Source of the DNA: Siphonodentalium dalli
Lineage: Eukaryota > Mollusca > Scaphopoda > Gadilida > Siphonodentaliidae
Assembly (NCBI GenBank): GCA_032622095.1
Contig: CP136063.1
Location: forward strand, 26,414,987-26,478,986
Direction of reading: 5' to 3'
Length of the DNA: 64,000 nucleotides
In this document: piece by piece, positions 6,725 through 52,540 of the stretch
Layout: each line of letters begins with the position of its first letter
How positions within the stretch are numbered: position 1 is the first letter of the stretch
Program-made: the position numbers and the translations under genes
Notes under the pieces: model-generated
Told to the model about the DNA's origin: nothing
Seen by the model: only the letters and a program-made list of their open reading frames with translations
The model's database searches: none

Positions 6725-7799
6725 TGCTTTGTTTCAACACGTCAATCAGTTCCCCGAACTTCTCCATCCTCTCTTTGTGCATTTTCAGCATATCTTCTCC
6801 ATTTGCAGCTTTTGATTGCTCTCAATCAAATTAACGAGAGTGTCCTTAGTGCTAGTCCGTTTTCTCTTCCTCTTTTCTGAGGTTTGCGTGGTTGCAGTGT
6901 CTGTGGGAGGTACATGTACGTCTCTATTGTCATCAGATTCATTGGGAAGAGCCTTGGGAGTTTTGTTTCTGACGTTCCCACAGTCGCGTTATCATCTGTG
7001 CTCATCGAAGCCATTAACTTTTTTGGGCGAACGTTCGCTTTAAGTTTATATCCGGCTCAGTTTGTCGTAAAAAGGACATGTTTTGTGCGGATTGCCAAAC
7101 AACTTATTGTGATCTTCAACCTTTCGGTAAGCCAAGGTTGATTTCCACTTATTTTTACACTGGGTTCCCATTATGGGCATGGTGTGTTCGGGCATTTGGT
7201 TTGATATCATTCGCCACGCGTTCTTCTTTTTCATTTTCCCACTGGTGAAATTATCCTGTTGGCTCTCGTACAAAAGAAATCAACGCCCGGGTCAAGTTGT
7301 CATTCCACACCATGGGCTGAGTTTCACTTGCAGTAGTCTGTGTATTAATATTGCCATCGATGTATGCGCTACTGATACTCTGTGATGTGGATGCTTGAAG
7401 TTGCGACTGTACGGTAGGAGTAGTAATGGCTGGCACTATGGCCCAGTACCCCCCAGAGGCTGGCACTATGGCCCAGTACCCCCCAGAGGCTGGCACTATG
7501 GCCCAGTACCCCCCAGATGCTGGCACTATGGCCCAGTACCCCCCAGATGCTGGCACTATGGCCCAGTACCCCCCAGATGCTGGCACTATGGCCCAGTACC
7601 CCCCAGATGCTGGCACTATGGCCCAGTGCCAGCATCTGGGGGGGGGGGGTACTGGGCCATAGTGCCAGCCTCTGGGGGGTACTGGGCCATAGTGCCAGCC
7701 TCTGTGGGGTACTGGGCCATAGTTCCAGCCCTGAGGATAGATGTTCCTGTCATTGATGTGACATTTCTGATCGAAAAAAATGAAAATGGACTTAGACAT
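6725..7799 (-). pseudogene. Myb/SANT-like DNA-binding protein, frameshifted
   Basis: Reading leftward from the ATG at 7799, a short leader enters a 10-residue repeat region, then a Ser/Thr/Gln-rich linker, then a Myb/SANT trihelix-type domain. That domain includes VWNDNLTRALI, a W after KMKKKNA, GTQCKNKWKS and CPFYDKL. The frame shifts by one base near 7255-7275 inside helix 1 and again after about 7046. A C-terminal tail with MLKMHKERMEKF persists to about 6725. This architecture is known for the Myb-like partner of Harbinger nucleases, consistent with the nuclease remnant at 5543. Several frame breaks mark it as decayed. A host Myb/SANT gene is the alternative. Confidence 0.6.
7429..7730. 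repeat. 30-bp minisatellite that reverses orientation
   Basis: About six direct copies of a 30-bp unit (core TGGCACTATGGCCCAGTACC) run from 7431 to about 7627. Three copies of the same unit follow in inverted orientation to about 7730. The unit length keeps the reading frame, so both strands encode 10-residue repeats: GWHYGPVPPR type on one, ASGGYWAIVP type on the other. The two halves could fold into a long hairpin. A run of about ten G marks the turn near 7637-7650. Confidence 0.95.
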
Positions 7800-8181
7800 T
7801 TTTTCATTACTAATTTAAAAGTTTGTATAATTCTGACCAGAGATGACACATCGACACGAACAGAATCAATTGGTGGGGATCCTACAGTGAAAACGATTTT
7901 GTTGAAATTTATCATTTATTTTTCAAAAACAAGAACAAGAACAATGAACAATAATATATTATTATACATCAATAATATTAACAAAGAACAATAATTTATG
8001 TACAAAACAAGGTCTCAGATTTGAAGAAACTTAATTGAACATCCTACAACATCCTACAACATCCTACGCTGAATCAATAACAAAAGAGTCTATTTTGTGG
8101 AGTTGTTGACACATTCGTTGTTATCTGGTCGTCGTCTTCTTTGCGTTGTATGTATATCAGCCGTCGATGTCCCGGTGAAGT
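7800..8181. other. AT-rich stretch at presumed Polinton left border
   Basis: Non-coding, with three copies of a 12-bp unit AACATCCTACAA at about 8038-8070. A Polinton terminal inverted repeat was expected here, but I found no match to sequence near 20.0 or 24.0 kb, so the left border is undefined. Confidence 0.5.
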
Positions 8182-8664
8182 TTAATTCAACAGCAAATTT
8201 GCTTTTCTGTATAATCGACCATAGTGCTTTCCAAACCATCGAACTATTGTTCTGTCATTCTTGAAGAAATCCCGAGAATTGAATAATCTTTTCATCATCT
8301 TTCCTTTCATCATGTGGTGGAGTGCGAATATACAATATAATCCACACACATTTGTCGCACGATGTTGATATCGTGTTGTATTCATAGTCCATGCTGATGA
8401 GTTCCTTTTTATGAATGGTAATATATATCGTCTCGGTGGTGGTAGTCCAAATGAGTCGAAGTATACAGCTGATCTTCCCTTGAATAACATCAAGGTCCAG
8501 TGTTCTCCTGGCTGATCCGATGAGTGCGTGTTCACAATATATGCTTGAATATGTTGTGGTTTCTTCTCTGGTAACAGATCTCTAGCACAAACATATGTGT
8601 TAAGTTTACACAACCAGGAATTGTCCAGAATATATTGAAGTTCAGCTGTCTGTATCGTTGTAAT
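8182..8664 (-). CDS. PRO: Adenain-like cysteine protease (Polinton PRO)
   Basis: An adenovirus-type maturation protease expected to cleave capsid precursor proteins. The catalytic His is in PGEHW, the acidic residue in FDSFG, and the Cys in NVCGLYC, in the family order and spacing. The frame is open from about 8664, but no ATG occurs; the codon where related proteins would begin is ATT at 8662-8664, overlapping the end of the upstream gene. Either the start codon has mutated, a non-ATG start is used, or a later alternative start (TTG at 8613) serves. Catalytic residues look intact. Family assignment is strong; translatability is uncertain. Confidence 0.88.
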   Translation of the reverse strand: MTTIQTAELQYILDNSWLCKLNTYVCARDLLPEKKPQHIQAYIVNTHSSDQPGEHWTLMLFKGRSAVYFDSFGLPPPRRYILPFIKRNSSAWTMNTTRYQHRATNVCGLYCIFALHHMMKGKMMKRLFNSRDFFKNDRTIVRWFGKHYGRLYRKANLLLN

Positions 8665-9101: not shown

Positions 9102-10406
9102 CTAATAGTCAGTAAGCACTTCTCTCAAAGCTGTGATCTCTATTTCACTGTCGAATTCAGCATACACCAAAACGTTGACGGCTGTAGTGAGAGCTGTCAA
9201 GAACTGAAGCTCCAAACGCAGGTTCCCTGTCTTTATAGGATGTAGATGTCCCTCGTCGCTTCCTTGGTCCGGTGTCAAGTCGAAACCCCACAAACAATAA
9301 CCATTCATATATTCTTTTAAATTAATGCCAATTGATTTGTTAACACCAAACATTCCTAAAGATTGATACAAAGATAAATATGATCTGAGACATTGTTTTG
9401 TTGCGAAGTTTGGTTCAAATGGACGGTTATGTATTGTATGACCGTCTTGACTAACTTCCAATTTATTCAAACTGAAATGTTTGAAGTGGAATGGATTGGT
9501 ACCCAAATCTCCATTCATATCTTTATTTTCGACCAACGCAATAAAAAGTCTCTTTGGTAATTGTCCTTGAAATAAGTGGTCTTCAATTTTTGATCTAAGT
9601 CACGTACTAATTGTGAAAGTTTTTATTTCTACTCGTCTGATAGGTAGTTTCATTTTTGACTGGACAATTTCTTGATTTAATTTATTTGAGACCGCTGGAA
9701 AGAGACTAACTGTTCTGACATGGAACACTGCTGATTCGGAAACAATTTGTCCATCCTCGGAGCCAATGAGGCAAAATTTTTATGGTGATCTGTTTAATCT
9801 GATACGAATTTCAATTCCATTTGGTAAATATTTTTCTTGAAGAAACAGATCGGTGTGTAAGCGTCCGCATAGTTCAACAAATTTACTACCAGTGATCAAA
9901 CTTTCTCTAGAAGTTAATCCAGCATTAGCACCACCTTTGGTGCTCTCTTCAAATTGTTCTGCTGTATCGCCATACCACATTTCTAAATTTGCTAATTGAT
10001 TATCTTTATATTCTTGAGAGTATCCCAACAGATTTTCGAAATATGCTCGGTATGGGTAAGTGTCAGAATTTGAAGTTATCAATTTGTTGTTCAAGTAAAC
10101 ATTGATACTGCTGAACATGCTATGAAAGAAATTGTTAACAGGTGCTAATTCCGTAGCAGCTATCAAATTAGTTCCATCTTTTTTTGTAATTTTGAATTTC
10201 ACATAAAGATAAGATTGATTAATATCTGTCCACTTTTCGGTTTGAGATGGTATGACAAACTCTATCGGAGCAGAATTATTCAGCGGTGCAATAGGATGAT
10301 TTTCGATCCACTGCGATTCTGACATTGTAGCCACCGTTGGTGGAACATGTGTTATATCAAGTTCCGATTTATTGCATTCGCATGATCCATTTACCATTTG
10401 TGCCAT
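9102..10406 (-). pseudogene. Polinton major capsid protein, two breaks
   Basis: The N-terminal 208 residues (10406 to about 9780) carry the Polinton capsid hallmark region around IEFVIPSQTEKWTDINQSYL. The C-terminal half (to 9102) continues with residues typical of the second jelly roll, such as NPFHFKHF and YLSLYQSLG. Between them the frame shifts by one base near 9780, at a TAA followed by a run of A, and there is an in-frame TGA at 9600-9602. Total span of ~435 codons fits the family. It should form hexons of the predicted virus-like particle, but this copy cannot make a full product unless the breaks are sequencing errors. Confidence 0.88.
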
Positions 10407-10788: not shown

Positions 10789-11639
10789 TTAGAACTCCTC
10801 TCGTTTTCTGAAATGTAGGTTCACCAAAGACTTACCACCAATAAACTGAATTGATTTTCCTGTGTCGCCACTTATATTTACACTAATTTTGTCAAAGTAT
10901 GACTTTGAAACTGGAACATAATGTAAATTTAAAAATTCATGTTTTACATGTAATCCGTCGATATCTCTTTTACTTCTGAAAGAAACAACTCGTAAAATTT
11001 GTACTTCAACATTTCCAACAAATGTGAATTCGCAATATCAGAATAAACAAACATTAGATTATGACCAACATTCAAATCTACACCAAACGGAAATCTATTA
11101 TTTGAAAAAAAATCTTCAGAAGCGTTTTCAGTTTTGTAACCCAACTTGTGCAAAAGACATTGTGGTAATTCAATTCCTAGTTTTGTGTTACTTAAACTCT
11201 TGCGAATAATTATCACACGTTTTGTAGCTTTTGAGTACCCGATGTGAAATCCGTATTCGTTTTGCATTGCTTCTCCAAGTGTTTCATCAATTACATCTTG
11301 CATTGTATCAAGTAAATCTGACGCAGAGGTATACGAACCTTTTTGTATCTGTATTTCAAGTGCATGAACGCCATCAGGTCTCCTAAATATCTTTTCTTCA
11401 AAACGATTTTGAAGAACAGTCAGTAATATTGCATCAGTTGTAATCAAATTGAAATTACACGAATCCCCTGTAACATTGTATGTTTCTGAAGGTGTTACCA
11501 GTTCGACTAATGCAACTTCCCATTTTTCTTTATCAATTTGAACTGGTTTTGGTAATTGTACAGTAAAACAACATTGAGTATTGTTTGGATACATTACCAT
11601 CGAACTGTCGCTCGGAATTGTAATGTAGAAAGGATTCAT
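10789..11639 (-). pseudogene. penton-like minor capsid protein, frameshifted
   Basis: The frame starts with ATG at 11639 and shows the N-terminal signature of Polinton minor capsid proteins: an early PNNT..FTVQLPKP segment followed by WEVALVELVTPSETYNV. The main frame shifts by one base near 11011-11020. The remaining ~75 codons, ending at 10789, complete the family's C-terminal strands, with YVPVS, FDKISVNI and LHFRKR. It overlaps the membrane-protein gene by 4 bp (ATGA) and precedes the basic-protein gene. The single-base break could be a real mutation or a sequencing error. Confidence 0.85.
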
Positions 11640-11909: not shown

Positions 11910-13004
11910 TTATACCAAATTTGTGGCAGGTATCCAACTGTCAAATTTTTTAGGATAACCAGCCCAATGAACTTTAATTTCTCTAACTGATTTACCAGCA
12001 ACTTTTCTTGAACGTTTACCAACAACTGATTCAATTTCGTAAACTTTATTATCTTTTATATGTTGAATTTCTTTACCATAAAATGATCCTGCGATGTTTT
12101 CACCATCTAAATCTACTAATTTGTAAGTTAATGGTGTACTTTTACAAACTCTACTAATTTTGAAAAAAAATTTTGTCCAATTTGGAAGATATCCTTTATC
12201 AAAAGTTCTCTTTGTTTTATTTATTCTAACAAAATCTCCAACTTTCAAGATCTTATCTTTTTTCGTTTTTAACTTTCCATAAAGATTTCTGGAAACTTCA
12301 ATTTCATTTTATCGAGTTACTAAAACTGGTGCCATCTTAATACTTCTATGAAAACTTTTGTTGTAAGAATTCACAAAATCGTGCAAAACATCAACGTATT
12401 TCAAAGTTTGATTATGTGTAAAATATTTCCACATCTTTGTTTTCAATGTCCGTTGAAAACGTTCAACTATACTTGCTTTTGTCTCTGGATTCTCTGTTGT
12501 GAAAAAATGAATTTTCTTAGATTTCAAAAATTGTAAAAATAATTTATTTTTGAATTCTGAACCTTTGTCAGATTGAAATGAAACTGGTTTTCGTTTTGAT
12601 GATTTGAGAATTTTCTGAAATGTTTTAACTAAAGTTTTACCAGTTTTATCTTTAATTTTTTCAACCCATGCAAATTTTGAGAACACATCAATAACACAAA
12701 GTAAATATCTGTATTTGTCATTGTGCTTTTGCAAAGTTTGCAAATCTGCCAAATCAACTTGCCACTGAATATCAATTCCTGCAACAATAGTTTTACGTCT
12801 GCGAAATTTCCGAACAATTGGTTTGTGCAAAGTATATGTTTTTTGCCATTGTAACCATTTTTTAACATCTGAAAGTTTAATTTTGTTATTTGTTTCTTTC
12901 GCATTTTTAAAAAGTTGATTTGCTCCGCTGAAACCACCAACTTCTTTTGGATTGTAGTAAATTTCAGTTAGAAGTTTGTCAAATTTTATGTAAGTGGGGA
13001 CCAT
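11910..13004 (-). pseudogene. INT: Polinton integrase with chromodomain, one stop
   Basis: A retrovirus-like DDE integrase. The catalytic acids are near residue 84 (QVDLADL), 146 (QSDKGSEF) and 181 (IVERFQRT), with 34 residues between the last two. The C terminus is a chromodomain ending in WAGYPKKFDSWI, which in this family binds modified histone tails and guides insertion. A single in-frame TAA at 12309-12311 separates the catalytic core from the SH3-like/chromodomain part, with the same frame open on both sides. The start at 13004 overlaps the upstream gene by 19 bp. The catalytic residues are intact, so the stop is the only visible lesion. Confidence 0.92.
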
Positions 13005-14756: not shown

Positions 14757-15407
14757 TTATACTTTTGAATAAATGACAGGCCCTCGGTCATTAGCTGTCA
14801 ACCATTTATGAAAAATATCAGTTCTAATTCGCAAATAATTTTCTGTTCTAGGATGAAAATCTACTAAAATATATCCATGATTTATTGAAGTTGCATCTTC
14901 GTATGCTTGTTTCAAATGATTGGTTTGCATTTGATGAGCCAAAACTTTTATTTGATTTTTATCTCGAACGCTTTGAAATAAAACCATGTAGTGTGCATTC
15001 AAACTTATAGTTCTGCTACTTTTTGATTTTTGGAACATGTTTTGAGTAATGTAAATTATTGAAGCATTTCGATGGTGCCCTTTTCTAGTAAACCAAAGCA
15101 TTATTTTGTCTTCATCTTGTTCCCCCATCATGTCATCGAAAACAACAAGATGAGGAAATGATTTATCTGATACAATTTCCTCATCATCGTCTGGAATACC
15201 ATCGATAAACTTAACGTTATCAATTTCTTTTATACGATTGTATGTGTCTTGCCACTCTTTGTAACACCAAACTATTTTCTTTGCTGGTGTTTGGAATAAA
15301 TCGTGTTTAAATTCAATAACTTTTTTAACAAATTCTGTTTTACCTGATCCACTAGGTCCGCTGATAAAGAAATTACACGGATGTTGGAAACGTAAAGATT
15401 CTTCCAT
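14757..15407 (-). CDS. ATP: Genome-packaging ATPase (FtsK/HerA type)
   Basis: 216 residues from the ATG at 15407. The Walker A motif is GPSGSGKTEF near residues 17-26. Walker B is HLVVFDDMM near 86-94, followed by a sensor-like YITQNMFQ. Length and motif order match the A32-like packaging ATPases of Polintons and adintoviruses, which drive DNA into preformed capsids. The frame is intact, and this is the best-preserved enzyme of the element. It lies directly downstream of an unknown frameshifted gene. Confidence 0.93.
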   Translation of the reverse strand: MEESLRFQHPCNFFISGPSGSGKTEFVKKVIEFKHDLFQTPAKKIVWCYKEWQDTYNRIKEIDNVKFIDGIPDDDEEIVSDKSFPHLVVFDDMMGEQDEDKIMLWFTRKGHHRNASIIYITQNMFQKSKSSRTISLNAHYMVLFQSVRDKNQIKVLAHQMQTNHLKQAYEDATSINHGYILVDFHPRTENYLRIRTDIFHKWLTANDRGPVIYSKV

Positions 15408-16089: not shown

Positions 16090-19000
16090 TGACGAGTTTT
16101 CGTTTTGTGTACACCGATCTGAAAGTTTTGGTTTGACACTCACTAATCAGTTGATGGTTCTTTTGTCTTTTAATTCTGGAAGGATACTCAACAACAGTTT
16201 TGAAATTTTCACGATCATTAACACATTGTACCATTGTTTCAAAATTAACTTTTTGACTTGTGCTGTAATCAAGAGTGATACCTTTTACCTTACATTTGGT
16301 GTATCTTATCCCATCTTTGATGTATTCATATCCGTAGTTCTTTGGCCCAAGTCCAACAAATTTGACAATCTTTGCATCTGGATGTTCGTCGCTCCATTTC
16401 CCCAATCTTCCTTCGATAGTTTTGATGTTCTTCTTTGATGGATCACTGACATACATACAGCTGTCTGTATCAAAATACAGCACTCTATCTCCAAGTTTTT
16501 TAAAAACTTTATACAATTGTAATCTTGCATACGCTGTAACAAAAGAAGTAACAACAACATTTGCTGAATGATGAGGTTCAATATTATCTAAGATATCAAC
16601 ATAATTTACCAGAATGAATTTGTCACCATCAAGAAGTGTAACATTTTGAACAATTATATTGTTACTAGTAAGCAATTCAAAATAACGTGATGGTTTATCC
16701 ACATACTCTGTTTTTGACATAAGATTTCTTTGTGCATTCTTACCCCATATACAATTAATCATAATTTTAGATATTTGACGTTTTCCTGGATTCTTCTCGA
16801 TGTTCTCCAATTTATACCCTCAGCTGCATAATAATCCTGTACAAACTTTTGTTTCTGTTCTTCTGTCTCAACACCAAATGGATAACCACTACATTCCTGT
16901 TTGATCTTTAGATGTTTGTCGATTAGGATTTGTATATTTCATCTGTCCAATCTGTCCAATGCCAAATTTGGTACACATCAAGTATTTTGTAGCCAACATC
17001 CATTGCTTTGAATAATTCTGGCGTGGTCCACACTCCGGTTATAGCTCGATCTTCTTCTGAATGGTTACATGTCTCGTCCTCATTGATGGCACAAGTGTTG
17101 CACAAAGTAAAAACCATTTTCTTGTTACAATGAATCGGTAGAACTGGAATATACAATTTCGATGGTGGTAACATTGTACATTTAATAAGCCCCGCATAGT
17201 CTCTAATGTGTTCTTGATCGATCTGCTCTTGGCTCAAAATTTCTGGATGTCCAACAGGGTAGAATTTATATTTGTTGCAATATGGATACAACGAACACAC
17301 ACCGATGAACTTGATTTCTTTTGTGGAATCTTGATCAATTTCCTCGTACAATTTGATGGCATTTGTACGTCCACCAAACAACGCTTCTCTTGGCAAAATA
17401 GGGTCTCGATGTTTGTAGAAAGATTCCATTTGTTGTTTGAATTTCACATCCGATTTCATTCTTTCGTCGATCTGATGCTCCCAAATTGATTCAACTCTGT
17501 AACCAAGACTTTCCAGTTCATCTTTCTTCTGTTGAGTTCTTGTATATAATTCTTCCATGGTGAGCATCGTATAGGGATTCTTGTATTGTCTGTTGTTGTA
17601 ACATTTTGGACATCCATGAAACAGACATCCATTCATCTCAAAAACTGTTCTTGTGGCTTCCTCATACCCATCGACGTAGTGTCCACCAATCTTGATTTCT
17701 CCTCCATTCAAAGCATGTTTGATTGTTATCAAACGTGACAATGATAGGTGTTGAAGCCAACGTATCGCTTTCATGGAATAGTTTTTAGCACATGGGTATC
17801 CACCATCTGGAATGATTCCAATTGTTTTCTCTGGCATTGAATTCTTCCTCCATGCCAAATTGCAAACTTGCGCCAATGTTATTGACTCAATAAACGGGTC
17901 AATCTGTTCTGTTTCCAATATGTATTTCCTGAATTTTCCACATCCACGGCGAAGAATATCCACGTCTGATTTGCAGTACTTCTCCATTTCTTCTTGGAAG
18001 TTGAATATCACATAATTTTCTATTTTCTCATTGTACCATTCAAAGAATTTCTCTCTATTTTCCACGCTCATCATGTCTGTTTTGTAGTAATCAGAAGCCA
18101 AGTAAGGTCCAATGTAATTTTGAAACTTTGCTGAATTCGCCCAATGTGGAAAGTGTCCTTTCGCCATCTCATTCAGCTGAAAAGTTTGTGGAAACTTTGA
18201 AAGCGGCATCATCAGAAAACTCAGAGAATCAATAACTTTCACGCTGTTGCATTTTAAACTGAGAATCTTGTTTTCATTCATTATCAGTTCTGGTTTATGA
18301 ATTCCACTTTGTATGAGTGCTTGAAGTAGAAACTGTGCATCGTATCCCTGAGCATTATGTGCTATTGCAACACATCCTTTGTGATCTTGATGGAATAACC
18401 AGTTTGTGAAGTCTGTTAAAACGTTGTCACCCTTGAATACAAATTCTCTGGAATCCGGTCCGCATGTTTCACATTTGTCTTCGATTGGTTTGCACATGCA
18501 ATCTCCACAAGCGGTATGTGCAACACAGAAGTTTGGAATATGAACACCTGTGTCTTGTCTGCATTTGTGAAATTACACTGTGTCAATGACCAGCATGCAC
18601 AAACAAATCTGCATCGATGATCGCCACGCCTACTGAATCCAATGTCACAGAATTCGCAGTAGTAGCTGGTGCCTAGAAATCCTTTGATTGATGTTATGGT
18701 GTCGAAGTGATTGTTGTTGTAGTAGATGTGTACACATTTGCTCTCCGAACACATTTCTGCAGGTTCAAATAGAAATCCAGCGCCAGCAAATTCATTGTGA
18801 ATTTTCACAACATATTCTGGATACAATATTTCTTGAATCTTGTGGAACTCATTGATACTGCAAACTGTATCGTGTGGAATCCCCGCACGGTTGAGTAGAT
18901 TTTTTGCTGCATCTGTTTGTGCTGTGTATATTGATTGTCTTATTTTTTTCCATTTCTTTGACCAGCACGCAGATCCGTCACTATCTGCCTTACACATTCC

Positions 19001-19867
19001 GACGACAATAGATCTTGCCATACACATAACATCATCAGCATTTTCAATCCGGACAATACTTCTTTTTACTTTTGTCAACTTGTTCTTGTCTGCAAATGGT
19101 CCATAATGTAGTGAGTGTCGTGTACCACCTTCCGGAATATCTGTAATGAAGATTTCGAAATTGAGTGCACCGTCATGAATTGTAAAGTCTGCATTTGATT
19201 GAACCAGATTTTGAATATTATCCATGAGTGTCTCACCATTCAATTCACTGGCTTTTGTGAATGGAATGAAAATGTTCATATCAAGTCCTGGATGATTTAT
19301 CGTAACTCTGATTCTTGTCTTCTCATTTGCTGAACATTTCTGTTTCAATTCTTCTGTCAACTTCTCAAATATCTCTGGAATGTTTTCGATTGGATCTGTA
19401 AATTTCTCGAATTTCACACCAAATTGTCGTGATGCTGATTAAAATTTTCTGGAAAATTTCTCCGAGTTCAGCTCCAATTTGAAATATTTTGTTGGATTGA
19501 ACACAACACGCTCTCTAGCCAGACTTCTCTTTCTCTTCCCACCAATTTCTCTATTCTGTCTTCGACCGCGTCCAATCTGACCATCACTAGAACTTTCTTC
19601 ACTTTCTCCTCCATCAGTTTCCATATCGCTCTCTTCACTTTCTGCCCTATCAGTTTCCATATTGCTCTCTTCACTTTCTGCCCTATCAGTTTCCATATCG
19701 CTCTCTTCACTTTCTGCCCTATCAGTTTCCATATCGCTCTCTTCACTTTCTGCCCTATCAGTTTCCATTTCGCTCTCTTCAATAACTGCAGGCCTTGGTC
19801 TTTTTCTAACAATATCTTCTTCGCTGGCGGAGTCGTCTGAAACAGGTCTTTTGATTCTCTTAAACAT
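16052..19867 (-). pseudogene. POLB: Protein-primed DNA polymerase B, multiply broken
   Basis: This gene would replicate the element from its termini. From the ATG at 19867 it encodes a nuclear-type basic start, a 12-residue acidic repeat, a conserved N-terminal domain with a Cys-rich YYCEFCD zinc region, an exonuclease-like domain (AHNAQGYD and YCKSDVD retained), and the polymerase palm ending in YFDTDSC and a terminal PYGW. Breaks are an in-frame TAA at 19439-19441 and frameshifts near 18555, 16920 and 16810. Palm motif A reads GVCSLYP where the family has an Asp in place of Gly, and the exonuclease-I acidic motif cannot be found near 18560-18590. The copy is therefore catalytically dead as well as frame-broken. 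Total length of ~1270 codons fits the family. Confidence 0.93.
19601..19785 (-). repeat. 36-bp tandem repeat coding an acidic 12-mer
   Basis: Five in-frame units of 36 bp encode variants of SDMETDRAESEE near the PolB N terminus. Units differ by one or two codons (E/D/N and RA/GG). The acidic array lies between two basic segments. It is absent from the divergent gene at 20089, which shares the preceding 32 codons. Confidence 0.95.
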
Positions 19868-20184
19868 TTTTGTCTTGAGTTTTTTGTCAGCAAAAAATAT
19901 TGCGACTGGCTTCTTCGGAGTTGAAGTGTAAAGTGTATAATTACACAATTTTACACTTGCTTTTATAGCATTTTTCATCGCGACTGCTATAAAAAGCAGG
20001 TGTAAAATTGTGTAATTATACACTTTACACTTCAACTCCGAAGAAGCCAGTCGCAATATTTTTTGCTGACAAAAAACTCAAGACAAAAATGTTTAAGAGA
20101 ATCAAAAGACCTGTTTCAGACGACTCCGCCAGCGAAGAAGATATTGTTAGAAAAAGACCAAGGCCTGCAGTTATTGAAGAGAGC
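19772..20184. promoter_or_regulatory. 200-bp-arm palindrome with divergent TATA boxes
   Basis: The arms 19772-19970 and 19985-20184 are inverted copies, identical apart from a mismatch and a 1-bp indel near the centre (pairs sum to 39956). Each arm contains a TATAAAA-type box, a TGTAAAATTGTGTAATTATA-like segment and the first 32 codons of a gene: PolB on the minus strand (ATG 19867) and the zinc-knuckle gene on the plus strand (ATG 20089). It therefore acts, by inference, as a bidirectional promoter. It may equally be a junction of two Polinton terminal repeats or a template-switch inverted duplication; assembly error must be excluded. Confidence 0.85.
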
Positions 20185-20673
20185 TATATTGAGCTGCATA
20201 AAGAAGATTCAAAAAAATCTACACAACTACAGACTAGAAAAATTCAAGATAATCTTGTCGAATTGAGACAGATCTCTACTGATTTGTTTAAATTTTGTAA
20301 CAAAATGCAATGGCAAGAGAAACAAGAGAAAAACAAAGCTGATAAAAATTGGAAACCGCCATATGGTTACTGTTACAAATGCGGACAAGACTCCCATTGG
20401 TCCTTCCAATGTAAAACAGATTTCGGCGACAAAAAAAATGTGAAAACTATACAAAAAAGTCTACAAGCAGTAACAATACAAGAACAAAATGCAGATATCA
20501 AAACTGAAGAGATGTCTACAACATCAGATGTTTTCAAACAACCCCGACCTGTTGATCCTACGAATGATTCACAGAACAAATCTGAAGATAAACATCCAGC
20601 TTTTGAAAATTCCAAGAAAACTTCCAAGAAAAAGAAGCTGAGACAATTCTACATTCCAAAAACAGATAAATAA
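20089..20673 (+). CDS. zinc-knuckle protein sharing PolB's N terminus
   Basis: 194 residues. The first 32 are identical to the PolB start through the palindrome. Then follow a helical Gln/Lys-rich segment, a CCHC zinc knuckle at C95-C98-H103-C108 (CYKCGQDSHW), a polar linker and a Lys-rich C terminus. The knuckle predicts single-stranded nucleic-acid binding. A TATA-type box lies ~100 bp upstream, and AATAAA at 20707-20712 follows the stop by ~35 bp. The frame is intact, unlike PolB. It could be a genuine element gene or a chimera made by the inverted duplication. I know no homologue. Confidence 0.65.
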   Translation: MFKRIKRPVSDDSASEEDIVRKRPRPAVIEESYIELHKEDSKKSTQLQTRKIQDNLVELRQISTDLFKFCNKMQWQEKQEKNKADKNWKPPYGYCYKCGQDSHWSFQCKTDFGDKKNVKTIQKSLQAVTIQEQNADIKTEEMSTTSDVFKQPRPVDPTNDSQNKSEDKHPAFENSKKTSKKKKLRQFYIPKTDK

Positions 20674-20773
20674 ATCGATACAAACATTTGAAAATTATGT
20701 TGTGTGAATAAATTATGAATTGAACAATCGTGTTTTTTTTTCACCTATGAAAGAGTAACCTTTTGGGGAAATG

Positions 20774-20800
20774 TGGGTGGCCCTGAAAAGGGCCGTTTTT
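20774..20800 (-). terminator. histone-type 3' stem-loop 1
   Basis: On the minus strand the sequence is AACGGCCCTTTTCAGGGCCA followed by CCCA: a 6-bp GGCCCT/AGGGCC stem at 20779-20794 with a TTTC loop, A-rich 5' flank and ACCCA 3' flank. This matches the metazoan replication-dependent histone mRNA 3' end in every element. It sits about 20 bp after the stop of the minus-strand frame ending at 20814. Read on the plus strand the loop would be GAAA, which does not fit, so the direction is clear. Confidence 0.85.
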
Positions 20801-20813
20801 TCTTTTCCAGAAT

Positions 20814-21041
20814 TCATAAAAATTCTGCCAAATCAGGATATATCCCGTTGGGATTAATTGTCACAGACCAAGTAGACTTTGATCTGTGCGCCGCAGCAGC
20901 CTGAGCAAAGCTGCCAATCGCTACATTGCACAGATCTTTCTTCTTGATCTGTGACAAGATCTCCACGAGATCAAGATTGCTTGATTCTTTATCACATACT
21001 TCAGGCGATGGTCGTCGCCGAGCCAGAAAATCTCTTAGCAT
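20814..21041 (-). CDS. cassette A minus-strand protein, uncertain 5' end
   Basis: An open frame ending 20 bp before histone-type stem-loop 1. The first ATG is at 21041 (75 residues), but the same frame stays open without ATG to about 21180, close to the TATA-like box of the shared promoter. The first ATG after that box (near 21132) is in another frame and stops after 15 codons. The 5' end has therefore probably lost its start or suffered a frameshift. The protein has a basic start and a segment DLVEILSQIKKKDLC; no domain is recognised. Compared with cassette B, only position and 3' stem-loop are shared. Confidence 0.4.
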   Translation of the reverse strand: MLRDFLARRRPSPEVCDKESSNLDLVEILSQIKKKDLCNVAIGSFAQAAAAHRSKSTWSVTINPNGIYPDLAEFL

Positions 21042-21179
21042 CTGCTTCTGTACCACCTTTTGTTCAGGAGAATCCTGCCATTTCCTATATGTTCTTATTT
21101 CCGTCTCCTCTGACGAATCTCTCTTCCTCCATAACTTCTTGAAAAATTTCTTTAAAGACGGTATAATGAATGAAGTTCA

Positions 21180-21781
21180 CTGAAAAAGTGAAAATATTTT
21201 TATACATTTGACACGGGCGTCAATGAAATCACATGTCGCGTTGGCGTTAAAATTGACAAATATTTCCTCAAGTTGTGTTTTTTCAGAGACGGATCAGCAT
21301 GCATATTTTTCTTGATCATTATTGTATAGCGATCAAACAAATGTTTTTTATTTCGTTAGATCATTATCTATTATTTGGTAAACATGATTTGATATATTTG
21401 TTATCTCGTTAGGAAAATATGGATTGTTTTTCTAGTTTTTGTTTTTGGAAATGTACATATTTTATACATAAAACTGAACACAAGAAACATACTGAACATT
21501 TTTCTTCATCATTACAATTGATAACTTTACTTGGTCATCGTTTATGAACGAAGATGAATTCATATGTTAAAACATCTTAATTAATTGTATATACTATCAT
21601 GAATTTAATCTATAACATATCGAAATAGTAAAACTAACAGATAATGCACTGTAAAGAAACACAACGCCAGGAAACATTTGTCATTTTTAACGTCAAAGTA
21701 TTATGTGGTTTCTCTACCGCCCGCGCAATCGTGATATATGTTTAAGCACGGCCGTGAACAATTTTTATTCTGCATTCAAAG
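21180..21781. promoter_or_regulatory. cassette A bidirectional control region
   Basis: About 590 bp, nearly identical to 22800-23380, lying between divergent frames. It is AT-rich, with TATA-like boxes facing outward (minus side TGTATAAAAATATT near 21195-21210; plus side GATATATG near 21735). A 44-bp segment at 21225-21268 recurs in inverted orientation at 21669-21713, partly diverged, so each side has the same proximal block. Promoter function is inferred from layout. Confidence 0.65.
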
Positions 21782-21955
21782 ATGACCGCAATCCCCGAAC
21801 CGTTGATGTCTATACTAAGAGGAACGATAGGTCTAACACCCCAGATAATGTGGGACAGACACGCAAAAGAAGTAACCGCCAGTTCAAAACTGGTTATGCA
21901 AAAAAGAACAGCGGTGGAACAAAAGCAAAAGTCTCAAAAGAAAATCGTGGCGTGA
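21782..21955 (+). CDS. cassette A plus-strand 57-residue protein
   Basis: The start ATG (21782) lies at the exact equivalent of the cassette B start within the duplicated leader (CATTCAAAGATGAC). The frame ends at a TGA 20 bp before a histone-type stem-loop. The sequence is basic and Gln/Lys-rich at the C terminus; no domain is recognised. A longer frame on the same strand (21703-22050) runs through both stem-loops and is rejected for that reason. Small size and lack of similarity to the cassette B protein make coding status uncertain. Confidence 0.4.
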   Translation: MTAIPEPLMSILRGTIGLTPQIMWDRHAKEVTASSKLVMQKRTAVEQKQKSQKKIVA

Positions 21956-21970
21956 ACTTTGATGCCGTAC

Positions 21971-22045
21971 AAAACGGCCCTTTTCAGGGCCAAAAACAAA
22001 AACGGTCCTTTTCAGGACCAACCAATTTTTTCAAAAAGAAAAACT
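21971..22045 (+). terminator. histone-type 3' stem-loops 2 and 3 in tandem
   Basis: Two plus-strand stem-loops follow the cassette A plus gene. GGCCCTTTTCAGGGCC lies at 21976-21991 with AAAAC before it, and GGTCCTTTTCAGGACC at 22004-22019 with AAAAAC before and AACCA after. The second has a compensating change (C to T against G to A) that keeps the stem paired, which argues for selection on structure. A purine-rich CAAAAAGAAAAAC at about 22032-22044 is placed like a histone downstream element for U7 pairing. Confidence 0.82.
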
Positions 22046-22155
22046 TTTAGCATTGCTTAAGAACTAATAATGTTCCTTGTACCCTATGTTTCGTTTTGAA
22101 AAAATCACGCCACGAATAATTTAAAACAAAATATACTTGCAAATATTTGTTGTTG

Positions 22156-22161
22156 AATAAA
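22156..22161 (+). other. poly(A) signal AATAAA, cassette boundary
   Basis: AATAAA lies in a segment (22150-22215) that repeats the end of the preceding unit (20697-20770, AATAAA at 20707). Thus each unit carries both a poly(A) signal for plus-strand transcripts and, further on, a stem-loop for the convergent minus-strand gene. Confidence 0.5.
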
Positions 22162-22223
22162 ATATGAATTGAACAATCGTGTTTTGATTTTTCAGCAATG
22201 AAAGAGTAACCTTTTGGGAAATG

Positions 22224-22250
22224 TGTGTGGCCCTGAAAAGGGCCGTTTTA
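22224..22250 (-). terminator. histone-type 3' stem-loop 4
   Basis: On the minus strand: AACGGCCCTTTTCAGGGCCA followed by CACACA, with the stem at 22229-22244. It begins about 17 bp after the stop of the frame ending at 22267. Downstream sequence (TTCCCAAAAGGTTACTCTTTC) is conserved with stem-loop 1. It lacks the exact ACCCA flank seen in stem-loop 1. Confidence 0.82.
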
Positions 22251-22266
22251 AAATTATCATCTGACT

Positions 22267-22755
22267 TTAACATCGTTTTGTGTTTTTCTTATATCTTGAC
22301 ATATCTTTCCCATGAGAACCGATAGCTTTTGCGAATTCATCACTTTTCTCTGTATCTTTAGATTCTTTACAAGGAAGACGAAATCTGACTTTTGTCTCAG
22401 TAGAAGGCTTCATGATACTTTTAGGTTGTGTTTCTTTCGCCGCCAATATATTTTCTTTTTTGATCTGTTTCTGTTCTTTCGATCTCTGAACATCATGAAC
22501 CCTGATTGGTATATCTATCTCTTCTGCAACGAAACGAAGATTCACTTTCACTTCTTGATGCGTTACTTGTGTTTTCACGTCAATATCCCTGCGAAGACAT
22601 CTCAGTTCATCTAAAATCGCTTTTAAAATGAGTGTATCATCACCTATAGTCATTGTCGTATTAGCTTGGCCTGTTGACTGTGGTGCCGCATATGTATTCT
22701 GTGCAACAGGATTACTGTGTATCTCACTCTGAAGAAATTCTGTTAACGGATCCAT
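22267..22755 (-). CDS. cassette B minus-strand coiled protein
   Basis: 162 residues from the ATG at 22755; an upstream in-frame extension to 22809 is disfavoured because it enters the TATA box. The N terminus is polar. A helical segment around AILDELRCLRRDID is followed by a Lys/Glu-rich region and a basic C terminus ending KKNTKRC. No recognised domain and no resemblance to histones. The frame is intact and ends 17 bp before a histone-type stem-loop. It is divergent from the OTU-like gene across the shared control region. Function unknown. Confidence 0.6.
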   Translation of the reverse strand: MDPLTEFLQSEIHSNPVAQNTYAAPQSTGQANTTMTIGDDTLILKAILDELRCLRRDIDVKTQVTHQEVKVNLRFVAEEIDIPIRVHDVQRSKEQKQIKKENILAAKETQPKSIMKPSTETKVRFRLPCKESKDTEKSDEFAKAIGSHGKDMSRYKKNTKRC

Positions 22756-22789
22756 CTTTGATAGCAATGCAATGTAACGTTGATCAAAT

Positions 22790-23380
22790 TCGAAAATATT
22801 TATATACATTTGACACGGGTGTCAATGAAATCACATGTCGCGTTGGCGTTAAAATTGACAAATATTTCCTCAAGTTGTGTTTTTTCAGAGACGGATCGGT
22901 ATGCATATTTTTCTTGATCATTATTGTATAGCGATGAAACAAATGTTTTTAATTTCGTTAGATCATTATCTATTATTTGGTAAACATGATTTGATATATT
23001 TGTTATCTCGTTAGGAAAATATGGAATGTTTTTCTAGTTTTTGTTTTTGGAAATGTACATATTTTATACATAAAACTGAACACAAGAAACATACTGACAT
23101 TTTTCTTCATCATTACAACTGATAACTTTACTTGGTCATCGTTTATGAACGAAGATGAATTCATATGTTAAAACATCTTAATTAATTGCATATACTATCA
23201 TGAATTTAATCTATAACATATCGAAATAGTGAAACTAACAGATAATGCACTGTAAAGAAACACAACGCCAGGAAACATTTGTCATTTTTAACGTCAACGC
23301 GACATGTGATTTCTCTACCGCCCGCGCAATCGTGATATATGTTCAAACACGGCCGTGAACAAATTATTCTGCATTCAAAG
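22790..23380. promoter_or_regulatory. cassette B bidirectional control region
   Basis: Nearly identical to 21180-21781. A 44-bp block at 22827-22870 (TCACATGTCGCGTTGGCGTT within it) is repeated in inverted orientation at 23270-23313, retaining the same core (AACGTCAACGCGACATGTGA). Each block sits next to an outward-facing TATA-like box: TATATAAATA near 22800 for the minus gene, GATATATG near 23333 for the plus gene. The mirror arrangement suggests one factor drives both genes. Confidence 0.68.
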
Positions 23381-23845
23381 ATGACTGCTGTAAACATAAC
23401 ATATCTTAACGAGATGATGGTCCAGGGAGTATACTGTAAAGCAGTGTACGACGAAGAAATATCTCTATTTTGGAGAGCACTCAGCGTTGCGGTTTACGGG
23501 ACGACCGATAGATGGATGTTTCTGAGAGATGCGGTGGTTGACCTGTACTACACAGAGAGTGACGAACTTGGGGCGTCGGCGCAAGACTTACGGCACACAC
23601 CACTTTTGGCCGAATCAAGATTGATGGTTGAATTAGCTGCGACTGTTATACAGCGACCTATCGTCATGTTTGATGCTACCAAAGGCGGCTACAAATCAAC
23701 ACCAAGATTCAAGACATCAATACCTCTAGTGTGGATCCCCCACGTTTGCCACGAGCATTATTGTGAATGCGAAATATGGATGAGGAGAGGAGACAAATCA
23801 ATTGAAGTTTTGTCGAACAAAGAAGTTCAATGTGGCGGATTCTAA
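23381..23845 (+). CDS. OTU-like protein with altered catalytic motif
   Basis: 154 residues from the ATG at 23381. The layout resembles an OTU cysteine protease: D24 followed by a SLFWRALSVAVYG helix start (residues 28-40), an LRDAVVDLY helix, ES..MVELAAT (residues 78-87), then a C-terminal strand with several His (HVCHEHYC). Canonical OTU enzymes have DGNCLFRAL; here the Cys position reads Ser or Ile and a Trp is inserted, so it may be inactive or mis-assigned. The stop is 20 bp before a stem-loop whose second half is cut by the palindrome centre. The last ~45 codons are duplicated in inverted orientation at 23893-24061. Confidence 0.5.
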   Translation: MTAVNITYLNEMMVQGVYCKAVYDEEISLFWRALSVAVYGTTDRWMFLRDAVVDLYYTESDELGASAQDLRHTPLLAESRLMVELAATVIQRPIVMFDATKGGYKSTPRFKTSIPLVWIPHVCHEHYCECEIWMRRGDKSIEVLSNKEVQCGGF

Positions 23846-24061
23846 ACTATAACAAAAATAAAAACGGCCCTTTTCGAATATTTGGTGGCCCTGAAAAGGG
23901 CCGTTTTTATTTTTGTTATAGTTTAGAATCCGCCACATTGAACTTCTTTGTTCGACAAAACTTCAATTGATTTGTCTCCTCTCCTCATCCATATTTCGCA
24001 TTCACAATAATGCTCGTGGCAAACGTGGGGGATCCACACTAGAGGTATTGATGTCTTGAAT
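23707..24061. repeat. palindrome with 169-bp arms centred on a stem-loop
   Basis: The arm 23707-23875 is reverse-complementary to 23893-24061 with no indel (pairs sum to 47768) and no mismatch that I found. The 17-nt spacer lies inside the left histone-type stem-loop, which therefore has only its 5' half (23866-23875), while the right arm has the full loop at 23887-23902 on the minus strand. The palindrome thus fuses two tail-to-tail copies of the 3' end of the OTU-like gene. Confidence 0.9.
23885..23907 (-). terminator. histone-type 3' stem-loop 5
   Basis: On the minus strand: AACGGCCCTTTTCAGGGCCA followed by CCAAA, with the stem at 23887-23902. It belongs to the right palindrome arm and shows what the complete 3' end of the plus-strand gene presumably was. 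Confidence 0.8.
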
Positions 24062-43449: not shown

Positions 43450-46313
43450 CAATCAATCAATCAGTTTATTGCGAAAGCTATGATTTAACACAGAACATGC
43501 AAAATATATATATACATATATGTACAATAGCAGGAAACTATTTAGTGGCTATATAATCGTATACTCATGCCACAGCCATAATAACATAATATTTATACAT
43601 CTCAATCCCGCTGGGTGAAGGCACGCCCATTCCCATTTGGTCACCCACATCGAATAATGCAGGGGAACAGTAGTTATAATTACCCCCGGTCTCAACAATT
43701 GGGATGTGTTTTGAAATGGGGAGTTTTTGCCCAGGCGGGTGGGGTCTCCAGTGTCTCAGATTTTGGGCAATTCCTTAAAGGCACACTTAAGATATAATGA
43801 TAATCTCCGCAATATACTAATATTTTCAATCGATAGAAGTCTATAGAACTTTTCTTTGCTCGGATATTTCCAGTAATAGTCCGGGATATATTTGATTCGG
43901 ATATCATTAAGGTGTGAACATTTAATTACAAAGTGGTATTCATCTCCTATTCCGTCATTACATAATGTACAAACTCTGTCATTCTGTTTTGATTTTTTCC
44001 ACCGTCCACTTTCTATTGGTAATCGATGATTTGATGTCCTAATCTTAACAATGCATTCGGCTAAATACCATGGAAGTTGAGTTAGATATCTTCTAATCTC
44101 CGGACGTACAGAAATACCACCATAGAAACCACCCCTTGATGATGTAGCTACATTTCCCAACCATTCCTGGTTAAACTGATCAATAAGTATGGACTTTATT
44201 CGTTTTATATCCGATTGTGTAAGATCCTTTCTGCTCATGAACATGGAGTTCTTTCCAGTATCTTGGAATGTCTGCTCTATAAATCGGAGCCATTTGAGGT
44301 CTCCACTGCGATGCTGATTTTGATAAACGGTCAGTATTAATGTACACATATTTTTGGCGATAATCGAGCCCTCATTCGACATTAGTTTCGACCAATACGT
44401 TAAGATTCTACATTTTATTTCAATTATTAAAGGATGGCGACCTAATTCTCCGTATACCATATAGTTAGGTGTACTTTCTTTCATACCCATGATTATCTTA
44501 CAGAATTTGAGATGTACACTTTCGATTGATTTACAGGGTTCAAACCCCCAAACTTCACTGCCATATAATAATATGGGTGCGACCATCGTATCAAACAAAT
44601 GAAGCATGATATCTACAGGTAGCTCTAATTTCCTTACTTTATTCAACAGTGCATACATCGCCTTCGTGCCAAGTTTGCACGTTTTTTTAATAGATCTACA
44701 AAATCTCCCATTAAAGAAAAAATTTACACCCAGATACACAAATTCCTTTACCGTTTCCAAAGGTTTACCATTGAATATAAATGTCGGTACAATCTTAGGT
44801 AATCTTTTACAGAAAATCACAACTTTCGTTTTTGATGAATTAACTTCTAGACCCCATGCGTCCGCATAATCACTAAATGCCTGAATCGCCCTGTGCATAG
44901 TTGCCTCGTCGTCTGTCATTAGTACGGTATCATCCGCATATAACAAACATAATATACCCACAAAGCATTTCAAATTGTCAAAAAATAGATCATCGAGATA
45001 CTTTAAATTTTCGACCGCACAGTTACTGATAAATTCCTGCAAGTCATTCACAAATAAGGAGAACAAAAAAGGAGACATTAATTCTCCTTGAAAAAGGCCT
45101 ATGTTGCTGGCAAAAAACTCAGAACGTTCTTGTTCTTTTCTCACACATGTTTTTATCTGGCTATACATGTTCCTCACTACCCTGAACAATTTACCATTTA
45201 TTCCATTTTGCAGCATTTTAAGAAATAATCCCTCTCTCCACACACTATCGTATGCCTTTTTAAAATCTACAAATGCACAATAAAGTTTGCGCCCACTTAC
45301 GAGATACATGTTAATGATACTGTGCATAATAAATACATTATCAACAGTTGAGTGTTTTTTCTTGAACCCTGTTTGGTTTGTACCAATGAGACCCGTTTCA
45401 TCAGACAATTTTGAAAGTCTTCTATTCAAGATTGATGTAAACATCTTAGCGAAACAGCTCAATAAAGTTATCCCCCTATACGAATCGGGGCTCCCACGAT
45501 CACCGCTTTTCTTATATATGGGCTGTATCATGCCAATGGCCCAATCTTTCGGGAAGAACCCGGTGTCCAATATCAAATTGAACATACCAATATACACTTC
45601 AATTAGTTCATCGACAGAGAATTTTAGGTACTCATTACATACATTATCTACACCTGTCGCTTTATTATGTTTAAGATTTGAGACAGCTTCCCGTATTTCC
45701 GCTTCGGTGATTTCATGGTTTAATATACTCATGTGTGATTCAGTAAATATTTCATCTATATGTTCACCCAAATCTGCGTTCTCGTCATCGTCCTCGTTTA
45801 ATTTCTTAAAATGTTCGGCAAAACACTTTGTATCGGGACCGGATCTATTATCGCCCTTTTTGCCGTTATCGCTCACTAAAGTATTGAGCTTTTTCCAAAA
45901 GTCTGCGGTAGATCGACCATGGAAATGTCTCAAATTAGAGATTTCAGACACCCTTCTCTCTTTTATTTTCTTGTCCATCGTTTTTCTATAGTCGGTAGCC
46001 GCCTTACGGAACAATGATTTATTTGATTCTGTCTTGTCTGAATTATACCCGCGTTTAGTCTTATTAAAAAACTTTCGCTTTGTTCCACACTCGGTATCAA
46101 ACCATGGCTTCCCTGTCGGTCTCTATTTCGTGCCCCAGTACCAACACTGGTCACACCGCATGTATTGGTCGCGGATTCAATTATGATTGCCGTTATTTCT
46201 CCGCAAATCTCATTTATTGCTTCGCTATTTGTACCGTTGACACTCATGTCTCTAATTGCACATTTGACACCATTTACACGTTGAGTATTTATATTTCCTG
46301 CGTACTTCTGGCA
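43450..46313 (-). mobile_element. 5'-truncated LINE inserted in the right arm
   Basis: The insertion is defined by comparison with the left arm, which lacks it. ACTC flanks both ends (about 43446-43449 and 46314-46317). The 3' end, on the minus strand, terminates in a GATTGATTGATT tail after AATAAACT. The 5' end is truncated inside the region before the reverse transcriptase, so the endonuclease domain is missing, as is typical of target-primed reverse transcription. Confidence 0.88.
43756..46122 (-). pseudogene. LINE ORF2 reverse transcriptase, 5' truncated
   Basis: A 788-codon open frame without an ATG start, preceded by a short in-element stretch in another frame (46125-46313), so a frameshift lies near 46124. 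It carries reverse transcriptase motifs in order: KPWFDTEC linker, YRGITLLSCFAK, AFVDFKKAYDSVWR, the catalytic LLYADDTVLM, and a C-terminal CTLCN...EYHFVIKC zinc-binding motif. The endonuclease domain is absent. The RT core is uninterrupted, implying recent activity of the source element. The exact clade (I-like or related) cannot be fixed from memory. Confidence 0.9.
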
Positions 46314-51013: not shown

Positions 51014-51303
51014 ATGGTGCCGTAGCAGTTAACCAGAACTTGTGTTTCGTCACGGAATGGTGCTCGTGAGCTTGGAACCAGAACTTGTGTTTTCGTTCAT
51101 ACGTGAGTACTTACTATACCAACCAGGACGTTTCTTTTGATCTAATAATTTCAAATTAAATATACACAATACCCGCACTATGTTCTAGAGCAATTCTGTA
51201 ATGTCACAATGTGCATGTGCCAACCCAACTCAAATTATTAATTTCTTATATACCTGCAATTTTGCCTTTTCTATTCCCAATTACTTTAGTAATTAAAATC
51301 AAG

Positions 51304-52505: not shown

Positions 52506-52540
52506 AACATTCCACCCAGAGCGGAGCATCTGAGTGGAAT
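52496..52540 (+). promoter_or_regulatory. -1 ribosomal frameshift signal, gag to pol
   Basis: The heptamer T TTA AAC (52496-52502) is in the Gag frame, immediately followed by the Gag stop TAA. After a 6-nt spacer comes a stem-loop with arms ATTCCACCCAGA (52509-52520) and TCTGAGTGGAAT (52529-52540), one mismatch and an 8-nt loop. A -1 slip moves exactly into the Pol frame, which is open from here through 56800. These are all the parts of a canonical -1 frameshift element. Confidence 0.85.

What the first reader, a model, noticed from the sequence alone, without database searches (positions are those of the whole stretch)
20774..23907. Animal histone-type 3' stem-loops on non-histone genes beside a Polinton
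Five complete stem-loops (20779-20794 minus, 21976-21991 plus, 22004-22019 plus, 22229-22244 minus, 23887-23902 minus) have the 6-bp stem, TTTC loop and A-rich 5' flank of replication-dependent histone mRNAs, and two have ACCCA/ACCAA-type 3' flanks. Each lies in the sense orientation about 17-20 bp after a stop codon. One carries a compensating stem change. In animals this signal is bound by SLBP and, with U7 snRNP, gives non-polyadenylated, S-phase-limited mRNA. The encoded proteins are not histones. A mobile or virus-derived gene set using this end would tie its expression to host DNA replication. That last step is inference.
Basis: partly seen in the sequence, partly recalled or inferred. 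Interest (0 to 1): 0.9.

Follow-up and report, generated by a model that had tools for sequence, protein, structure and literature searches.

The report
Polintons with histone-type mRNA endings
A virus-like mobile element, present in at least 150 copies in one animal genome, carries the hairpin that normally ends histone messages at the ends of four of its own non-histone genes, so those messages are likely made without a poly(A) tail and timed to the host's DNA replication.

Summary
Confirmed and extended. Five loops exist as described; four exceed the Rfam RF00032 threshold, the fifth scores 22.2 of 34 bits. Strict motif: 5 here, 1 in 30 simulated windows. They lie inside, not beside, a Polinton. 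The host genome (2.2 Gb) is held. Of 79 other gene-D copies examined, 79 carry the loop in sense 19-20 nt after the stop, 76 with a perfect stem, 3 with one mispair. Partner genes A, B, C have it at 3/3, 8/8, 30/30 ends found. A second Polinton family (PolB 62%, gene D about 30%, gene C 26% identical) keeps the loop on its A, C and D counterparts. The zinc-knuckle gene has no loop but AATAAA 31-33 nt after its stop in 6 of 6 relatives. The 22-mer AAACGGCCCTTTTCAGGGCCAC occurs 1851 times genome-wide, reversed control 0. Host histone arrays and SLBP exist; U7 was not found. Transcript ends, SLBP binding and S-phase timing are inferred.

The parts
20779..20794 (-). histone-type stem-loop of gene A (Rfam match 20754-20799)
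   Evidence: 40.5 bits, gathering 34
20753..20764 (-). HDE-like box after loop A (AAAAGGTTACTC)
   Evidence: sequence and alignment with host histone ends; function inferred; singly not better than shuffles (0.24)
20814..21167 (-). gene A open frame (first in-frame ATG at 21041)
   Evidence: counterpart in relatives
21190..21789 (.). divergent promoter module 1 (96% like module 2; TATA before A)
   Evidence: promoter role inferred
21782..21955 (+). gene B
   Evidence: relatives
21976..21991 (+). first stem-loop of gene B
   Evidence: 22.2 bits, below gathering
22004..22019 (+). second stem-loop of gene B, with compensated pair
   Evidence: 37.1 bits
22032..22044 (+). HDE-like box after loop B2 (CAAAAAGAAAAAC), flank 22 of 26 nt like host H2B
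22156..22161 (+). AATAAA about 200 nt after gene B stop (possible back-up signal)
   Evidence: 11 of 11 ends found, window copy included
22229..22244 (-). histone-type stem-loop of gene C (Rfam match 22205-22249)
   Evidence: 40.1 bits
22204..22215 (-). HDE-like box after loop C (AAAAGGTTACTC)
   Evidence: singly not better than shuffles (0.15)
22267..22755 (-). gene C, 162 aa
   Evidence: no hit at E <= 0.001 in the protein search
22792..23388 (.). divergent promoter module 2
   Evidence: promoter role inferred
23381..23845 (+). gene D, 154 aa
   Evidence: at least 150 copies in host genome, this one included; no hit at E <= 0.001 in the protein search
23866..23875 (+). left half of gene D's own stem-loop, cut by the fold-back
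   Evidence: whole in relatives
23887..23902 (-). gene D stem-loop in the inverted arm (Rfam match 23862-23907)
   Evidence: 36.5 bits
23707..24061 (.). fold-back palindrome (arms 169 nt, 100% complementary, 17 nt between)
20089..20673 (+). zinc-knuckle gene, no stem-loop (internal contrast)
   Evidence: PF13917 E 1.1e-4, 22.4 bits, below its cut-off of 27
20707..20712 (+). AATAAA of the zinc-knuckle gene
16923..18497 (-). type B DNA polymerase of the Polinton
   Evidence: PF03175 E 5.4e-32
14757..15407 (-). A32-like packaging ATPase
   Evidence: PF04665 E 1.3e-8
12309..13004 (-). retroviral-type integrase
   Evidence: PF00665 E 3.2e-13
8182..8613 (-). adenovirus-type protease, weak match
   Evidence: PF00770 20.4 bits, cut-off 21.3
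9780..10406 (-). putative capsid gene (label recalled from Polinton gene order, no Pfam match)
   Evidence: 66-75% identical counterpart in family 2
7418..7908 (.). left terminal repeat region with 30-bp tandem repeats; inverted match (80%) lies right of gene D in L035

Best explanation
The loops are the 3' ends of four short non-histone genes (A, B, C, D) inside a Polinton, and the host's SLBP/U7 histone pathway would likely cut these transcripts just after the loop, giving tail-less mRNAs that are predicted to peak in S phase. Shown: loops in sense after the stop codons; kept, with at most one mispair, in all 79 other gene-D copies examined; kept in a second Polinton family whose A, C and D proteins are only about a quarter to a third identical; an HDE-like box at about the histone distance after most loop types; SLBP exons and histone arrays with the same loop in the host; a neighbouring gene of the same element with a poly(A) signal instead. 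Inferred: SLBP binding, U7-guided cleavage, absence of a poly(A) tail, and replication-coupled timing. The element so has two classes of mRNA ends, and likely uses the histone class to make its A-D proteins only in cells that are replicating DNA.
For: Rfam RF00032 above threshold 4 of 5; 5 strict motifs against 1 in 30 Markov windows; in the genome-wide RF00032 search the 14 control genomes had no match over the cut-off. Gene D: first 80 of 150 scored copies examined; excluding the window copy, 79 of 79 have the loop 19-20 nt after the stop (68 at 19, 11 at 20), 76 with all six pairs, 3 with one mispair. Genes A 3/3, B 8/8, C 30/30 ends found, 3 of the 30 with one mispair. Systematic sample of 20 of the first 100 listed loop places: 15 end genes A (10), C (2), D (3) of this family, 4 end second-family genes (A, C, D and one with only the tail of D), 1 unassigned, 0 histones. 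Second family is a Polinton: PolB 62%, A32 72%, capsid-like 66-75%, protease 47%; D 30% E 3e-6, C 26% E 2e-4, A 26-30% E about 1e-5. Sixteen ends aligned: AAACGG(C/T)CCTTTTCAGG(G/A)CCA kept in all. Loop diversity 0.023 against 0.12-0.15 downstream. HDE similarity to host: sum over nine types 76, 0 of 2000 shuffles as high. Host SLBP domain exons; histone H4, H2A, H2B with the same loop. Zinc-knuckle gene: AATAAA 31-33 nt after stop, no loop within 260 nt, 6 of 6 relatives.
Against: No RNA data. U7 snRNA was not found: RF00066 below threshold (26.8 of 34 bits) and two pattern searches near or below control level. Taken singly only B2's HDE beats its shuffles clearly (0.001); the other eight types range from 0.05 to 1.0, and D2 of the second family is worse than chance. 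In gene D the box (+12 to +28) is three times as variable (0.074) as the loop, and the stretch between stop and loop is as conserved (0.019) as the loop, so the copies' youth explains part of the conservation. pN/pS of D is 0.56 and of C 0.77. An AATAAA lies about 200 nt after gene B, and the A-rich 5' flank of D's loop itself holds AATAAA in the window (11 nt after the stop) and in most copies. Covariation of the stem rests on one sequence of 16 (40 of 500 shuffles as high). Proteins A-D have no known family, so why S-phase timing would help is open. Searches for genes C and D found no relative in other species, and eight Polinton-like contigs from elsewhere had no such loop.
Confidence: 0.75

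Rival explanations
1. Passive hitch-hiking: an ancestral Polinton captured histone 3' ends and copies them without using them.
For: The B2 flank is 22 of 26 nt like host H2B, so the loops likely came from a histone gene; synonymous divergence among copies is low (pS 0.045 for D), so many copies are young.
Against: The loop is kept while A, C and D proteins fell to about 26-30% identity between two Polinton families, 13-22 nt after the stop; stretches beyond the loop vary 5-6 times more than the loop; no histone domain is left in A-D.
Confidence: 0.1
2. The loop stabilises or exports the mRNA, or recruits SLBP for translation, but the 3' end is still made by cleavage and polyadenylation.
For: AATAAA about 200 nt after gene B in 11 of 11 ends found; one loop of gene B has no HDE of its own; U7 not found.
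Against: Most loop types are followed by an HDE-like box at about the histone distance, which such a role would not need.
Confidence: 0.12
3. The loops act as DNA, as recombination or replication hairpins of the element, not in RNA.
For: Two fold-back palindromes lie in the element (19764-20192 and 23707-24061), one with its turning point in a loop.
Against: In genes A-D the loops lie in sense 19-22 nt after a stop (plus B's second loop), with A-rich 5' flank, TTTC loop and mostly ACC-type 3' flank that DNA hairpins do not need; the first fold-back has no loop.
Confidence: 0.03

Closest known systems
Replication-dependent histone genes of animals (Rfam RF00032 stem-loop plus HDE, SLBP and U7 snRNP)
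   Same: Six-pair stem, TTTC loop, A-rich 5' flank, ACC-type 3' flank, short stop-to-loop distance, HDE-like box; divergent gene pairs (recalled as common in histone clusters; seen for host H2A-H2B)
   Different: Encoded proteins are not histones; carried by a dispersed virus-like element; gene B has two loops in tandem; processing not shown
Polintons/Mavericks and adintoviruses of animals
   Same: PolB, retroviral integrase, A32 ATPase, weak adenovirus-type protease, terminal repeats; nearest PolB relatives include Mercenaria, Saccostrea and an adintovirus record
   Different: In the listings seen (some capped) no title or abstract start speaks of histone-type ends in them; genes C and D gave no hit in the protein search
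Histone-like proteins ('Histoid') of adomaviruses and tailtomaviruses (PMC11071296, passages seen)
   Same: A histone theme in related animal viruses
   Different: There the protein resembles a histone; here only the mRNA end does

Membership tests
Polinton/Maverick | Type B DNA polymerase | tested here: met
   PF03175 E 5.4e-32
Polinton/Maverick | Retroviral-type integrase | tested here: met
   PF00665 50.2 bits, cut-off 32.6
Polinton/Maverick | A32-like packaging ATPase | tested here: met
   PF04665 35.1 bits, cut-off 22.8
Polinton/Maverick | Adenovirus-type protease | tested here: inconclusive
   PF00770 20.4 bits, cut-off 21.3
Polinton/Maverick | Jelly-roll capsid proteins | tested here: inconclusive
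   no Pfam match for 9780-10406 or 10944-11639
Polinton/Maverick | Terminal inverted repeats | tested here: inconclusive
   left region 7418-7908 matches, inverted, the region after gene D in L035; the right one is missing in the window copy
Polinton/Maverick | Target-site duplication | not tested
   right end of the window copy is truncated
Replication-dependent histone mRNA 3' end | Stem-loop scoring above RF00032 threshold | tested here: met
   4 of 5 in the window
Replication-dependent histone mRNA 3' end | Histone downstream element | tested here: inconclusive
   sum over 9 types: 0 of 2000 shuffles as high, but singly weak except B2, D2 fails
Replication-dependent histone mRNA 3' end | Host has SLBP | tested here: met
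   PF15247 60.6 and 31.4 bits, cut-off 27
Replication-dependent histone mRNA 3' end | Host U7 snRNA complementary to the HDE | tested here: inconclusive
   no U7 found
Replication-dependent histone mRNA 3' end | mRNA without poly(A) tail, ending after the loop | not testable with these tools
   no RNA data
Replication-dependent histone genes | Encodes a histone | tested here: not met
   no histone family listed for A-D at E up to 10

The most novel reading that the evidence does not exclude
An animal Polinton lineage has moved a set of its non-histone genes under the host's histone mRNA pathway, so that a virus-derived element makes tail-less, S-phase-timed mRNAs; its loops (by my estimate most of 1851 exact copies) outnumber those of the host's own histone arrays and could compete with histone mRNAs for SLBP and U7.
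Probability: 0.45. Interest if true: 0.93.

Novelty: new variant of a known kind. Interest (0 to 1): 0.86.

Why it matters
Replication-dependent histone genes are described as the only genes known to make mRNAs that end in this hairpin instead of a poly(A) tail (PMC1924863, passage seen; published 2007). A mobile, virus-derived gene set with the same end would break that rule, would show a new way for a DNA element to read the host's cell cycle through RNA processing, and would offer natural variants (double loops, changed HDEs) for testing what the machinery needs. It would also raise the question whether, by my estimate, over a thousand extra loops burden histone supply.

Tried and rejected
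Chance hairpins: rejected. Nearby histone capture: rejected, no histone family listed, and the host histone ends searched for lie on C5 and C8. The 23887-23902 loop as an independent loop of a minus-strand gene: replaced by a fold-back arm. U7 search: RF00066 (only 65 of 541,557 first-look candidates scored; L037 read as chance) and two patterns (13 matches, reversed control 35; 175 matches, control 145); nine of the 13 were looked at, no U7 recognised. Relatives in IMG/VR: none for PolB or for the loop pattern AAMGGYYCTTTTMAGRRCCAC. Polinton-like contigs in prokaryote assemblies: the 8 best of 23 loci were scanned, no Rfam match. Structure of D from one sequence: mean pLDDT 37.9, not used. 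An OTU-protease idea for D: my impression from the sequence, no Pfam or PDB support, dropped.

Rows dropped before counts; copies with gaps to the query (D 2 of 41, C 14 of 32, A 5 of 7, zinc-knuckle 4 of 6), then identical copies collapsed; the figures for A and the zinc-knuckle gene rest on two sequences each and are not used; the window copy left out, 79 copies collapsed to 44 distinct rows; matches that stop more than 12 nt before a gene's end were not counted, so A, B and C counts are of ends found; most loci were cut around gene D and do not reach A or B; first 80 by score of 150 matches; the other 70 were not read.
Full report
OBSERVATION. The five loops exist at the stated places. Rfam's RF00032 model scores four at 36.5-40.5 bits (threshold 34) over their full length, the fifth, the first loop of gene B, at 22.2. 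In 30 Markov windows of the same make-up the strict form appeared once in all, against five in this one.

WHERE IT LIES. On the minus strand from 8.2 to 19.4 kb the window holds a Polinton core: integrase, A32-like ATPase and type B polymerase pass their Pfam cut-offs, an adenovirus-type protease falls just short. To its right follow a zinc-knuckle gene and two divergent gene pairs, A/B and C/D, each around a 600-bp module that is 96% alike in both. In another copy (L035/L036) the region after gene D is an inverted match to the window's left end with its 30-bp tandem repeats, so A-D lie inside the element.

THE HOST GENOME. The window lies on contig C3 of a 2.23-Gb, nine-contig animal genome of unnamed species. 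Gene D has at least 150 full-length matches, itself included, at 87-100% identity, 9 of them with a stop inside (only the best 150 of 753 candidates were scored). I looked at the 3' end of the first 80 by score. Leaving out the window copy, 79 of 79 have the loop in sense, 68 at 19 nt and 11 at 20 nt after the stop; 76 have six pairs, L013, L014 and L022 one mispair; of the 78 that the first script recognised, 74 have loop TTTC and 4 a one-base variant. In the 40 longer copies the loop follows gene A at 3 of 3 ends found, B at 8 of 8 (7 with both loops), C at 30 of 30, 3 of these with one mispair. Across 44 distinct gene-D ends pairwise diversity is 0.023 in the loop, 0.006 in the A-rich flank, 0.019 between stop and loop, 0.146 just after the loop, 0.074 in the box and 0.119 beyond. 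The spacer is as constant as the loop and the box less so, so this is support, not proof.

HOW MANY. The exact 22-mer AAACGGCCCTTTTCAGGGCCAC occurs 914 + 937 times, the reversed control never. Host histone arrays likely account for a minority: the H2A/H2B-type end occurs 94 times (71 on C5, 23 on C8), the H4-type end 37 times on C5, so about 60 array units; with four or five genes each this is some 240-300 (my estimate; H3 and single histone genes were not counted). The first 100 listed places all lie on C1, in 45 clusters. Every fifth (20 of 100) was read: 10 end gene A, 2 C, 3 D of this family; 3 end the C, A and D counterparts of a second family and 1 (L145) carries only the tail of that D; 1 (L151) is unassigned; none is a histone. 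Another 20 of the 100, chosen as likely other families, gave 17 with an A, C or D gene of either family before the loop, 1 with a PolB fragment (L167) and 2 (L165, L171) unassigned.

A SECOND FAMILY. At C1:49328194-49346228 two loops of C and A type and, 17 kb on, one of D type flank a Polinton whose PolB is 62%, ATPase 72%, capsid-like protein 66-75% and protease 47% identical to the window's (six pieces were read, not the whole). The second family's D is 30% (E 3e-6; 28-29% in the alignment) and C 26% (E 2e-4) identical, its A 26-30% (E about 1e-5), and D lies at the other end, behind the protease. The loop is unchanged; it lies 19 nt (A, C) and 13 nt (D) after the stop. This is the strongest sign of use: proteins and gene order changed, the loop did not. 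In an alignment of 16 ends, host H4, H2A and H2B included, AAACGG(C/T)CCTTTTCAGG(G/A)CCA is kept in all.

THE DOWNSTREAM BOX. Host histones have CCAAAAAGATAAAC (H2A, H2B) and TTAAAGAGATACT (H4) after the loop; Polinton ends have AAAAGGTTACTC, CAAAAAGAAAAAC, CGAAAAGATACTC, TCAAAAGATACGCTC, CGAAAGATATGCTC. Best 12-nt match to the host boxes, summed over nine types, is 76, reached by 0 of 2000 shuffles, but singly only B2 is clear (0.001), the rest lie between 0.05 and 1.0, and D2 of the second family fails. The motif was chosen after seeing the sequences. The host has SLBP exons. U7 was not found, so pairing is untested.

INTERNAL CONTRAST. The zinc-knuckle gene of the same element has no loop within 260 nt and an AATAAA 31-33 nt after its stop in 6 of 6 relatives. 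Within 200 nt after the other core genes no loop occurs in the window, and in eight longer pieces of other copies no further histone-type loop was found besides those of A-D and two poor look-alikes. So one element carries two classes of 3' ends. Against a clean split, the A-rich flank of D's loop itself holds AATAAA and gene B has one 195-201 nt on.

MECHANISM. Established knowledge: SLBP binds the hairpin and U7 snRNP the HDE, cleavage follows after the hairpin, and these mRNAs lack poly(A) and are made in S phase (PMC1924863, passages read). By inference the host does the same to A-D transcripts. A replicating DNA element would gain expression only when nucleotides and replication factors are at hand. 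What A-D do is unknown: no Pfam family, no PDB relative of D, no relatives of C or D in the protein search. pN/pS of D is 0.56, so it is under modest constraint.

LITERATURE. A search for Polinton with histone stem-loop gave 0 papers; the listings (titles and starts of abstracts seen; those of 17, 68, 71, 80 and 114 were cut to the best 10-20) name none on such ends in mobile elements or viruses. Of PMC11071296 and PMC1924863 only passages were read. The library lacks most subscription papers.

VERDICT. Real, non-random, conserved, and inside a virus-like mobile element; its use by the histone pathway is the best explanation but awaits RNA evidence.

Noticed in passing
window 19764-20192: A second fold-back (arms 201 nt, 98% complementary, 27 nt apart) makes two divergent genes (19439-19978 minus and 20089-20673 plus) share part of their N-terminal sequence.
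   Followed up: partly
L151 (C1:114626957 and 114626989) and C1:114636620/114636652: A tandem double loop, 32 nt apart, after an unassigned frame, like gene B's double loop.
   Followed up: partly
L165, L171, with L178, L179 upstream: Loops with AAAGA-type boxes whose upstream frames match neither Polinton family; L178 has a long minus-strand frame unlike A-D. Possibly a third kind of carrier.
   Followed up: partly
L020 at 900, L166, L076: The part after the loop differs between copies of one gene and is shared between genes (the ACCAAAATAGTTACAATAAG variant follows both C and D; in L020 terminal-repeat-like sequence follows), as if ends were exchanged as modules.
   Followed up: no
3' flanks in alignment A2: A TTGCT/TGCTA/AGCTAA/AGCTG-like word recurs 28-33 nt after the stem in 7 of 9 Polinton end types; a similar word follows host H4's box.
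   Followed up: partly
window 51211-56800 and 43756-46014: A Ty3-type retroelement (gag, protease, RT, integrase) and a reverse transcriptase gene.
   Followed up: no
rows with 183-aa frame, E 2.6e-90: Dozens of gene-D copies with the same score, suggesting a recent burst of the element.
   Followed up: no
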